Shown piece after piece: positions 50,914 through 52,941 of a DNA stretch of 64,000 bases (within the stretch, counting starts at the first letter, position 1; the number at the start of each line of letters is the position of its first letter). The stretch is from assembly GCF_038006205.1 (NCBI RefSeq), contig NZ_JBBOUU010000001.1, positions 3,350,001-3,414,000 of the forward strand, written 5' to 3'. The notes beneath the pieces are model-generated. The model made no database searches, was not told the origin of the DNA, and saw nothing but the letters and a program-made list of their open reading frames with translations. The position numbers and the translations under genes are program-made. This stretch comes from Solibacillus sp. FSL R7-0668. GTDB lineage: Bacteria > Bacillota > Bacilli > Bacillales_A > Planococcaceae.

Positions 50914-51105
50914 TTAGTTTTTTTTCGTTCGATCAATTACTACATTTACGTCCAATGGTTCTGCCGCAAATTCTTCTTTTGGCTTTTTTCTTGATGCTTG
51001 TCCAAGTATGGCAAGCATTTCATTGTAGGAAGAACCTGACGAGGCATTTAATCGCTTCACTTCTTCAATATCTGTTCCCGCTTTTGTATACTTCTTTCCT
51101 TCCAT
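50914..51105 (-). CDS. Gamma-type SASP-like small protein
   Basis: This 63-aa protein has an N-terminal KAGTDIEEVKRLNASSG that closely resembles the repeat unit of gamma-type small acid-soluble spore proteins (SspE-like AGT-x-x-x-EVK-x-x-NA). It has only one clear unit and a charged C-terminal half. An AGGGAGGTG SD precedes the ATG. It could be a diverged SASP that supplies amino acids at germination. The IS110-family element is inserted upstream of it. Confidence 0.55.
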   Translation of the reverse strand: MEGKKYTKAGTDIEEVKRLNASSGSSYNEMLAILGQASRKKPKEEFAAEPLDVNVVIDRTKKN

Positions 51106-51239
51106 TCATACACCTCCCTCTATAAATGTTGATATATCAATGGTTTGCACCGTTTTCGAGTGTCCAAAAAATATTTTTCGACACGTACATCTATCGTTAT
51201 TTTGTAATTCTTGATTTTTTTTACAAACAGTCCGTACGC

Positions 51240-51510
51240 TTCGCTATAGGATAAACCAGTAAATGGTAATTATCCCTCTGATCCTGTGCGCTATATCGAT
51301 GCACTTTTGGATCTCTGCGTTGCTTATGATGACGGACCCTCCCATATCTCTAGGCGTCTGATGCGCGTACATTCCTTCGTTCGGTCTATTCATAAGGCAG
51401 AGGCTGGCGATGCTCCCTTAGGGACTCTTTGCGATTCGCACGGTCGAATGGTGGAAATAGTGCCGGCTTCTCCGTGTCATCCTCTTGTTTGTGACTTCTG
51501 ATGGTGTCGC
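51240..51510 (-). ncRNA. Candidate bridge RNA region at the 3' end of the IS110-family element
   Basis: About 270 nt between the recombinase stop and the element end are non-coding and visibly richer in G and C than flanking DNA. They are rich in short hairpins: GATCC..GTGC..GCAC..GGATC at 51280-51313, TCCCTAAGGGA near 51415-51425, GCGA/TCGC near 51432. IS110-family recombinases use an element-encoded bridge RNA, which in the IS1111 group lies at this 3' position. An ORF of 71 codons on the plus strand here is not credible. The boundaries and loops are not defined from sequence alone. Confidence 0.55.
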
Positions 51511-52840
51511 TTACGCAGCCGTTTGAAGCTGGGTGAAATCGTTCATCATTTGGTCTGGATTAAAATAAATTTTCTTGTTACACAAGGCATGTAAAATCTT
51601 CAGTAACTTCCCACACAGGACGACAATCGATTGCTTTTTACGCAGTGGATTGTTGGTGCGTGTGGTGTAATGTTCGTGTAACGCTTTAAACGCTAGATTA
51701 TGTTGAATCAATGGCATCATGACACGGAATAGGAGGGCGCGAAGTTTGCGTCTTCCACGTTTAGAAATCCGTTTTTGTCCGGTTTGTTTACCTGAAGAGT
51801 TTTCACGCAATGTGAGTCCCGCGAGTTTGATTAATTGGCGTGGATGCGTATATTGCGTGAGCGAACCGACTTCTGATAGTAATTCGACAATCGTGACATC
51901 GCCGATTCCGGGTACAGATGCTAGGTAGTCATAATCCGTCATTTGTTTCGCTAATTCCGTTAATTGTACAGTCAATTCATCGAGCTGTGCCTGCATTAGT
52001 TTCACTTGAGAAAGCAGTGTGGCGATTTCATAACGGGCCATCACCAGTCCTTCCGTCAGTCCAATTGAATGAGGTGCCAGTTCGACTAATTGTTTCGCTT
52101 TCGGTAGTTGAGGACTTTTCATCCCGTCTACTTGGCGATAAAGGAAGAGCAGTTCTTCCGGTGTTTTCCCTTGAATATCCATTGGCAGCGGCGTTTTTTC
52201 CAGCACCGCATACGCCATTTTTCCAAAATTTTTAAAGACTTGTGTAAACTCTGGGAAGAAACGGTCTAACCAACGAATGATGCGGTTTTGAAGGGCGTTT
52301 AAATCCTCTTGAATTTTTGAACGCAACGTCGCACCATTTCGTAATTCCGCTTCCACGCCTTCTAAAAGACGAGGATAGCTAAAGCGTCCATCTCGCATTA
52401 GACGGGCGATGACAAGCGCATCTTTTTGGTCATTTTTCGTCTGCAGGTTGTCGTCGAGTTCTTTCGAGCGATTGACGTGCATCGGATTGACCATCACAAA
52501 CGGAATCCCATAGTGTGTTAAAAACGCCGCTAAGTTCATCCAGTAGTGACCAGTTGGCTCGAAACCAACGAGGATTTCTTGTTTTTCATGTGCCGTTTTT
52601 AACGTAAGCAGACGCTCATAAAACGCTTCAAATCCGATACGTGATTGCACGATAGGAAATGATTTTTGGAGCACGCGACCGCGATCATCCACAGCACAAG
52701 CGAAGTGCTTATGCTTGGCAATATCGATGCCAATGACTAACGTATTTTCAGAAACTTGATTAATTTTTTCATTCGTATTAAAATTCATTGTTGTAAGTCC
52801 TCTCTGTAGATGTGCGAGTCAATTGTCTGGTTGACACTCA
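51247..52840 (-). mobile_element. IS110-family (IS1111-like) insertion sequence, about 1.6 kb
   Basis: The element comprises a DEDD/serine recombinase gene (51511-52788), a short 5' flank and a 270-nt structured 3' flank. Candidate subterminal inverted repeats are AACCAGTAAATGG (51254-51266) and the complement of CAATTGTCTGGTT (52820-52832), sharing AACCAG and about 9 of 13 positions. No target duplication is seen, as expected. It lies between a SASP-like gene and a MFS gene. The exact ends are uncertain by about 10 bp. Confidence 0.75.
51511..52788 (-). CDS. IS110-family RNA-guided recombinase/transposase
   Basis: This is a 425-aa IS110-family recombinase. The RuvC-like DEDD domain has Asp22 (GIDIAK), Glu77 (GFEPTG), Asp120 and Asp123 (KNDQKDA). 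After a coiled coil, the C-terminal Tnp domain has the SVPGIGDVTIVELL helix-hairpin-helix and the serine motif ENSSGKQTG (Ser331/332), the nucleophile of this family. All catalytic residues are present, so it may be active. GAGAGG, its SD, can pair with an upstream CCTCTC, which would restrain translation. Confidence 0.9.
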   Translation of the reverse strand: MNFNTNEKINQVSENTLVIGIDIAKHKHFACAVDDRGRVLQKSFPIVQSRIGFEAFYERLLTLKTAHEKQEILVGFEPTGHYWMNLAAFLTHYGIPFVMVNPMHVNRSKELDDNLQTKNDQKDALVIARLMRDGRFSYPRLLEGVEAELRNGATLRSKIQEDLNALQNRIIRWLDRFFPEFTQVFKNFGKMAYAVLEKTPLPMDIQGKTPEELLFLYRQVDGMKSPQLPKAKQLVELAPHSIGLTEGLVMARYEIATLLSQVKLMQAQLDELTVQLTELAKQMTDYDYLASVPGIGDVTIVELLSEVGSLTQYTHPRQLIKLAGLTLRENSSGKQTGQKRISKRGRRKLRALLFRVMMPLIQHNLAFKALHEHYTTRTNNPLRKKQSIVVLCGKLLKILHALCNKKIYFNPDQMMNDFTQLQTAA

Positions 52841-52868
52841 AACATCATACGAGAGGGCTTTTTTCTTT
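52795..52868 (-). promoter_or_regulatory. SD-sequestering hairpin ahead of the IS110 recombinase
   Basis: On the minus strand AAAAAAGCCCTCTC (upstream) can pair with GAGAGGACTT, which contains the recombinase SD. Transcripts that enter from outside the element would fold and hide the SD. On the plus strand the same repeat ends in T6 and resembles a terminator. Confidence 0.5.
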
Positions 52869-52941
52869 TCAAGTCCCTGAAAATTCTTCTAACAGGAATG
52901 CTCCCTTTCAACTAGCATGTGCGGGAGTGTATCATTTATGT

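What the first reader, a model, noticed from the sequence alone, without database searches (positions are those of the whole stretch)
51240..52840. IS110-family element with a candidate 3' bridge RNA
The recombinase has every catalytic residue (D22, E77, D120, D123, S331/332). About 270 nt of GC-rich, hairpin-dense, non-coding DNA follow its stop, while the 5' flank is only about 50 nt. In this family a bridge RNA with two loops pairs with target and donor DNA, and a long 3' non-coding end marks the IS1111 type. This copy could therefore be a compact, intact RNA-guided recombination system.
Basis: partly seen in the sequence, partly recalled or inferred. Interest (0 to 1): 0.7.

Follow-up and report, generated by a model that had tools for sequence, protein, structure and literature searches.

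The report
RNA-guided element that targets ribosome-binding sites
A bacterial jumping element appears to carry a small guide RNA that matches the signal in front of genes where ribosomes dock, so it often lands just before a gene and rebuilds that signal on landing.

Summary
The finding is real; its coordinates were too short. It is a complete 1,791-bp IS110-superfamily insertion sequence (window 51114-52904, minus strand) with a 425-aa DEDD/serine recombinase and a 397-nt 3' non-coding end. Five full home copies fix its ends; two congeners carry the uninterrupted site AAAGGGAG|GTGTAT[G/A]AATGG. The 3' end encodes a structured RNA (modelled over 172 nt) with a target loop and a second loop, like bridge/seekRNAs. 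A covariance model finds it in 72 of 261 family genomes and 76 of 398 class genomes; Rfam gave no match. The 9-nt left guide predicts each copy's own left flank (6.94 of 9 matches, 5.05 permuted, 0 of 5000 as high), also within target classes; sister elements with altered guides sit in correspondingly altered targets. The window copy, and 76 of 112 insertions scored, are programmed to AAGGAG|G, the Shine-Dalgarno sequence. 51 of 77 such copies have a start codon plus open frame 3-15 nt downstream, about what the motif alone predicts, and the right end re-creates GGAGG. Anatomy mixes IS1111 and IS110 traits. No paper found describes Shine-Dalgarno targeting by this family. Transcription, donor pairing and present activity are inferred.

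The parts
51114..52904 (-). Complete element, 1791 bp counting the GGAG core at both ends (1787 bp plus one core)
   Evidence: ends shared by 5 home copies; uninterrupted site in G002 and G015; length
52901..52904 (-). Left copy of the GGAG core at the target/element junction; left flank reads TTGAAAG before it
51114..51117 (-). Right copy of the GGAG core; the next base, G at 51113, completes GGGAGG in front of the downstream gene
52789..52904 (-). Left end (116 nt), begins GGAG-CATTCCTGTTAG
52844..52872 (-). Promoter-like TTGAAA-N17-TATGAT inside the left end (10 of 12 consensus), a pattern match only
51511..52788 (-). IS110-family DEDD/serine recombinase gene, 425 aa
   Evidence: Pfam PF01548 + PF02371, NF033542, catalytic residues, AlphaFold model matches IS621/ISCro4 structures
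51114..51510 (-). Right end / 3' non-coding region (397 nt), ends ACATTTATAGAGGGAG
51307..51478 (-). Bridge/seekRNA-like RNA (region modelled by R1; true 5' and 3' ends unknown)
51446..51460 (-). Putative right target guide (5' strand of target loop), CTATTTCCACCATTC
51413..51421 (-). Left target guide (3' strand of target loop), CTAAGGGAG
51313..51402 (-). Second domain (putative donor loop): stem CTCTGCCTTATGA / TCATAAG..GCAGAG, carrying AGGAATG (51370-51376) and GGGAGG (51338-51343)
   Evidence: stem by covariation; donor pairing inferred, not above chance in one sequence
50914..51105 (-). Downstream 63-aa ORF whose Shine-Dalgarno sequence was the insertion site
   Evidence: no Pfam match at E 0.01

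Best explanation
This is an intact IS110-superfamily insertion sequence that chooses its site with its own RNA. The 3' non-coding end is transcribed (inferred) into a bridge/seekRNA with two domains. In the first, the 3' strand of an internal loop (left target guide, CTAAGGGAG) has the sequence of the target top strand and so would pair with the bottom strand. The 5' strand (right target guide) would pair with the top strand just right of the insertion point. The target is AAGGAG|G, the Shine-Dalgarno sequence. The recombinase, a DEDD RuvC domain plus a serine (S332), exchanges strands at the shared core GGAG between a circular element and the target (inferred from IS621). Because the right end finishes in GAGGGAG and the target supplies the next G, insertion leaves GGAGG at the native distance from the start codon. 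The downstream gene keeps a ribosome-binding site but gains 1.8 kb of upstream DNA with its own promoter-like sequence. Shown here: ends, uninterrupted sites, target motif, conserved RNA structure, guide-target covariation. Inferred: transcription, donor-loop pairing, chemistry, effect on the downstream gene.
For: Five home copies share ends. Uninterrupted sites: window locus in 2 congeners; the L011 locus in the 7 congeners aligned. RNA structure: 95.6% of cells paired, 7 pairs with changes on both sides against 2.7 in shuffles; slid structures reach at most 44.4% paired. Left guide against own left flank: 6.94 of 9 own, 5.05 permuted, 0 of 5000 as high, 112 insertions of 68 RNAs. Guide positions 1-5, outside the core used to find the ends: 3.08 against 1.59, 0 of 20000; within the Shine-Dalgarno class 2.80 against 2.21, 0 of 20000. 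Single bases in 71 of the 76 SD-class rows (flank ending GAG): guide G at position 5, 7 of 8 targets G, otherwise 3 of 63 (p 7e-7); guide T at position 4, 7 of 9 targets T, otherwise 3 of 62 (p 3e-6). Of 272 windows across the RNA, both orientations, the assigned left guide is the best predictor, z 11.2, next 6.0. Start codon plus ORF 3-15 nt downstream: 51 of 77 SD-class, 1 of 30 palindrome-class, control windows 17%. Catalytic residues and fold.
Against: Donor guides: the CATTCCT and AGGGAG runs are no longer than expected by chance (272 of 2000 and 905 of 2000 shuffled RNAs as long) and the donor hardly varies, so no covariation can be seen. The right guide signal is modest: within the palindrome class own pairs are no better than permuted (5.0 against 5.09), in the small third class 666 of 20000 permutations reach the observed value, in the SD class 41 of 20000. 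Among this element's three identical copies only two targets carry the guide's extra G, and L011 matches 5 of 9. 26 of 77 SD-class copies have no start codon plus ORF in range, including one of the five home copies. The structure counted was drawn by hand on the same alignment, and one of its measures (further pair types, 12 against 12.2) is not above shuffles. Sequences are related, so permutations overstate independence.
Confidence: 0.88

Rival explanations
1. The recombinase protein alone reads the target, as in ordinary site-specific recombinases; the 3' RNA is unrelated or structural, and the guide resembles the target only because related elements share both.
For: Related elements share guides and targets by descent; 76 of 112 scored insertions have the same kind of motif.
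Against: Guide and target change together at single bases within one class. Elements with the same scaffold sit in unrelated targets that match their own guides (TTTATGAG, CTCCCGGAG, CATCGGGAG, CGGTGCAG, GAAGCAG, GCGGCAG). Only this window of the RNA predicts the flank strongly.
Confidence: 0.05
2. The guide reads only the 6-7 base motif AAGGAG(G). The link to ribosome-binding sites is a by-product, because most AAGGAGG in these genomes lie in front of genes, and it has no biological point. (This is about the meaning of the target and can be true together with the best explanation.)
For: In 464 kb of the host genome 30 of 54 AAGGAGG sites (56%) and 91 of 217 AAGGAG sites (42%) have ATG 4-12 nt downstream, close to 48 of 77 insertions (62%). 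The right guide adds little beyond the first G.
Against: Nothing here excludes it as the recognition rule. It does not explain why the same programme recurs in distant elements under at least seven family labels (f1, f6, f11, f22, f28, f53, f54), or why the right end also finishes in GGGAG, so that the site is restored.
Confidence: 0.5
3. The 3' region is a cis-regulatory RNA (attenuator or terminator) of the transposase or downstream gene, and its AAGGAG is just a ribosome-binding site.
For: It contains SD-like strings and lies before a gene; hairpins are conserved.
Against: In sister elements the same position holds GGGGCAG, TTATGAG or CTCCCGGAG, which are no ribosome-binding sites but match the left flank of those copies. 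The pattern scan found no terminator-like site in the element on the sense strand.
Confidence: 0.03

Closest known systems
IS621 bridge-RNA system (IS110 group)
   Same: Recombinase fold (Foldseek E 1.6e-13, TM 0.80 normalised by the target), DEDD + serine, RNA with a target and a second domain, 9-nt left target guide, short shared core (PMC11208160 and PMC11208158, passages).
   Different: IS621 recombinase is 328 aa and it targets REP elements; IS110-group RNAs are mostly in the 5' end. Here the RNA is 3', the recombinase 425 aa, the target the Shine-Dalgarno sequence, and the shared core 4 bases.
IS1111-group seekRNA elements (ISEc11, ISPa11, ISKpn4)
   Same: RNA in the 3' non-coding region; top-strand match 5' of bottom-strand match (PMC11187229, sections 6, 8, 9, 12, 13 read; here).
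   Different: Recombinase 425 aa against 330-350 aa; inverted repeats short or deep inside the ends; different target.
IS110-group elements with a downstream non-coding region (a group mentioned in PMC11187229 section 6)
   Same: Large IS110-type recombinase with a 3' region; perhaps the nearest published anatomy.
   Different: Members and targets of that group were not compared here.
ISCro4 (PDB 9t56)
   Same: Best sequence match among solved structures (E 1.8e-13) and same fold.
   Different: 19% identity over the structural alignment; 341 aa.
ISMch6/ISEc21 natural redirection (PMC11187229 section 12)
   Same: Guide bases and target changed together.
   Different: There one pair of elements; here 26 distinct left guides over 112 insertions.

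Membership tests
IS110 superfamily (DEDD/serine recombinase) | RuvC-like DEDD domain plus Tnp (Transposase_20) domain with conserved SG | tested here: met
IS110 superfamily (DEDD/serine recombinase) | Precise insertion at a short core with no other change to the target | tested here: met
   single GGAG in the uninterrupted site, GGAG at both ends after insertion; the compared genomes are other species, so flanks differ by ordinary divergence
IS110 superfamily (DEDD/serine recombinase) | Circular intermediate | not testable with these tools
   needs PCR or reads across the junction
Bridge RNA / seekRNA | Structured RNA in a non-coding end, conserved by covariation | tested here: met
Bridge RNA / seekRNA | Target loop matching the element's own target, changing with it | tested here: met
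   left guide; right guide weaker
Bridge RNA / seekRNA | Donor loop pairing with the joined element ends | tested here: inconclusive
   complementarity present but not above shuffles; donor nearly invariant
Bridge RNA / seekRNA | RNA expressed and bound by the recombinase | not testable with these tools
   needs small-RNA sequencing or co-purification
IS1111 group | Guide RNA in the right (3') end | tested here: met
IS1111 group | Top-strand match 5' of bottom-strand match | tested here: met
IS1111 group | Subterminal inverted repeats of 7-17 bp | tested here: inconclusive
   14 elements: longest repeat 6-10 bp, longer than 30 shuffles in 3 of 14. 66 end pairs: own ends share longer repeats than permuted ends, 5.97 against 5.62, 42 of 5000 as high; 26 of 66 have the repeat at left offset 58-62 and right offset 38-42 (for example TTGAGTGTCAA, GGGTGTCAAA), 15 of them 7-12 bp. 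Real for some, but 40-60 bp inside the ends.
IS1111 group | Recombinase of 330-350 aa | tested here: not met
   425 aa
Rfam RNA family | Match to a curated RNA family of release 15 | tested here: not met
   Searches (window stretch, E up to 5; 6 loci, gathering): no match to the guide-RNA region

The most novel reading that the evidence does not exclude
A lineage of RNA-guided transposons spread through class Bacilli has as its main, possibly original, programme the Shine-Dalgarno sequence. That target is kept alike in every host by the ribosome itself, so the element finds hundreds of sites in any new species. Its right end is built to rebuild that sequence, so each insertion puts the downstream gene behind an element-borne leader and promoter without destroying translation: RNA-guided, translation-preserving rewiring of gene expression. 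Branches of the lineage have repeatedly exchanged this guide for others (palindromic repeats, GC-rich sites).
Probability: 0.45. Interest if true: 0.8.

Novelty: new variant of a known kind. Interest (0 to 1): 0.62.

Why it matters
The IS110/IS1111 targets named in the papers seen here are REP elements, attC sites and conserved sites in other mobile elements. A guide that matches the ribosome-binding site aims at a motif present in hundreds of copies in the host (116 AAGGAGG per Mb of sampled genome, both strands) and functional, which makes transposition directly relevant to gene expression. The family also offers a large natural experiment on guide-target rules (26 left guides, several target classes) for a recombinase clade that differs from IS621 in size and RNA placement, useful for choosing new programmable recombinases. 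The RNA had no Rfam match and could be added with the model made here.

Tried and rejected
Rfam: only chance-level matches in the window stretch, none to the guide RNA in 6 loci. Subterminal inverted repeats: first judged absent (14 of 16 elements asked for were examined), then re-tested on 66 end pairs and found real for a part of the family but deep inside the ends; a short AACA/TGTT pair beside the donor was seen by eye only. The idea that the right guide encodes an ideal spacer plus ATG was dropped: at the best offset, per-position matches in the SD class fall from 0.82 at the first base to 0.25-0.55. Recognition of start-codon context beyond AAGGAGG was not supported by the host background. 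Donor-guide covariation could not be tested because ends and loop are nearly constant. The tree of 18 recombinases needs four changes of target class, and shuffled labels do as well in 44 of 200; it suggests but does not prove that SD is ancestral, and the label of L152 rests on a shifted flank. Searches were scripts that failed and were rerun. Alignment A1 had two rows from wrong coordinates and A2 one; A3 replaced them. Literature: searches listed no paper whose title, abstract or (where opened) passages report an IS110/IS1111 element targeting the Shine-Dalgarno sequence. PMC8024623 (passages) lists GAAGGAG insertions, of ISGka1/ISGka2 (IS701 family). PMC12500396 and PMC12982343 (passages) only cite the seekRNA work.

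Rows dropped before counts: the 170 loci scored (one model hit each) were chosen by me from hit lists that were themselves capped. One search used 112 of the 170 (26 without a readable left flank, 5 duplicates, 1 without a guide, 26 with an atypical hairpin, mostly distant elements whose guides and flanks are printed there). A few rows with badly placed left ends (L197, L027, L216, L146, L152) were kept. One search used 100 of the 112; one search used 108 insertions with a right-end match of at most 2 mismatches and a distinct flank (77 SD, 30 palindrome, 1 other). In one search seven of the eight other genomes with a match were aligned; the eighth match (L248, 57 bases) was not.

Full report
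What is there. A search of the host genome with the region finds three copies at 100% over the match (this one, C3:38.6 kb, C1:0.52 Mb), two at 85%, and one partial left end at 73%. Oriented and compared, all five full copies begin GGAG-CATTCCTGTTAG and end ACATTTATAGAG-GGAG, while the sequence outside differs. The element is therefore 51114-52904, 1791 bp including a GGAG core at each end.

Uninterrupted sites. In two congeners the sequence flanking the window copy is continuous across the insertion point: TTAAAAGGGAGGTGTATGAATGG in G015 and TTGAAAGGGAGGTGTATAAATGG in G002, with one GGAG. At a second locus (L011) the seven congeners aligned are uninterrupted, five of them with AAGGAGG in front of the start codon and two with variants of it. 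The element thus sits inside ribosome-binding sites; in four of the five home copies a start codon with an open frame begins 8-9 nt after the core, and in the fifth (L012) it does not.

The guide RNA. The 3' region aligns across relatives. On a 24-sequence alignment a two-domain structure of 25 base pairs in five helices, drawn by hand, has 95.6% of cells paired, 7 pairs with changes on both sides (shuffled mean 2.7; 0 of 500 as high), and slid versions at most 44.4% paired; one measure, further pair types, is not above shuffles (12 against 12.2). A covariance model hits 72 of 261 genomes of the family and 76 of 398 genomes drawn from the class, in 48 of 146 genera. Rfam release 15 gave no match for it.

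Guide against target. In 170 chosen loci, each with one model hit, the 9 nt after the GAGTCC hairpin resemble the left flank of the same element: SD type CTAAAGGAG, CTATAGGAG, CTAAGGGAG and so on; palindrome type CCGGGGCAG in CTAACGGGGCAG|GTTAGTT; variants with GGTGCAG, GAAGCAG and GCGGCAG, each found with a matching site; CATCGGGAG, CTGCTGGAG, CTCCCGGAG and CCTTATGAG in other sites. For 112 insertions of 68 distinct RNAs and 26 left guides, own matches are 6.94 of 9 against 5.05 permuted, maximum 5.71 in 5000. Positions 1-5, which play no part in finding the ends, give 3.08 against 1.59 (0 of 20000), and the effect holds inside each class (SD 0 of 20000, palindrome 0 of 20000, others 15 of 20000). 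Single-base tests inside the SD class agree. A scan of 272 windows of the RNA in both orientations puts the left guide first, z 11.2, next 6.0. For the right guide the scan peaks where expected, z 4.8, with the next unrelated window at 4.3, and own matches exceed permuted ones over all elements, 3.91 against 2.85 of 6 (maximum 3.37 in 20000), but not within the palindrome class. Relatedness among elements makes these permutations optimistic.

Shine-Dalgarno targeting. Of 77 distinct SD-class insertions with a right-end match of at most 2 mismatches, 51 have a start codon opening a frame of about 25-30 codons or more at 3-15 nt, most often 7-9 (38 of 51), against 17% in control windows; of 30 palindrome-class insertions 1 does. 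In 464 kb of the host genome 56% of AAGGAGG and 42% of AAGGAG sites have ATG 4-12 nt downstream, against 48 of 77 insertions, so the motif alone explains the association and no reading of the start codon need be assumed. SD-like left flanks also occur in distant relatives from other families of the class, with recombinases 43-49% identical to this one where aligned, on both sides of the deepest split of a midpoint-rooted 18-protein tree. This makes SD a likely ancestral programme, not a proven one.

How it probably works. By analogy with IS621, whose D11, E60, D102, D105 and S241 form composite active sites (PMC11208158, passages), the recombinase (predicted fold matches IS621 and ISCro4 complexes) would bind its RNA, pair the left guide with the bottom strand of ..AAGGAG and the right guide with the top strand beginning G, and exchange strands at GGAG with the joined ends of a circular element. 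The second RNA domain holds AGGAATG and GGGAGG, complementary or identical to the left and right ends, but such runs are not above chance in one sequence and hardly vary. Donor recognition is therefore inferred from architecture. The right end supplies GAGGGAG and the target the next G, so GGAGG is restored. A promoter-like TTGAAA-N17-TATGAT lies in the left end and the pattern scan found no terminator-like site on that strand within the element, so read-through into the downstream gene is plausible, not shown.

Placement. It is an IS110-superfamily element with a bridge/seekRNA. RNA location and guide order are as described for IS1111, but recombinase size is not (PMC11187229, sections 6, 8, 9, 12 and 13 read; PMC11208160, passages). 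Inverted repeats of 7-12 bp exist at fixed places in part of the family but lie 40-60 bp inside the ends. PMC11187229 mentions IS110-type elements with a downstream region. What looks new is the target programme, the restored ribosome-binding site, the extent of natural retargeting and an RNA not in Rfam. None of the listings showed a report of it; ISfinder and most subscription journals were not searchable.

Noticed in passing
L006, L007, L008 (G000 C1:0.277, 0.879, 1.730 Mb): A second, different IS110-type element (408 aa by ATG) in the same genome; the three copies compared abut GGGGCTGTC-type sequences that look like the start of hairpins.
   Followed up: partly
L014 1501-1588 (G000 C1:1563606-1563693): A solitary left-end relative of the same family (GGGAGCATTCCTTTATG..) followed by what looks like a gene start; not examined further.
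   Followed up: no
L033, L036, L058-L064: Sister elements insert in a recurring palindrome of the type CTTATTGAACTAAC-GGGGCAG-GTTAGTTCAATAAG, a REP-like or terminator-like repeat in several genomes.
   Followed up: partly
L200-L203, L204-L206, L043/L100/L101, L207-L209: Further target classes (CATCGGGAG|TCGCCGCC, GCTGGAG|TCG, CTCCCGGAG, TTTATGAG|CGGAA) in flanks that resemble each other within a class, perhaps repeats of their own.
   Followed up: no
L009 offsets about 61 (left end) and 40 (right end), window near 52840 and 51158: GAGTGTC inverted repeat; in relatives the same places carry TTGAGTGTCAA, GGGTGTCAAA or TGATG, changing partly in step.
   Followed up: partly
L204 25-91: An Rfam Bacillaceae-1 sRNA lies near an element copy.
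   Followed up: no
L068-L072, L076, L078, L081, L094, L095: In these drafts the contig ends inside the element's right end, so copy numbers in drafts are probably undercounts.
   Followed up: no
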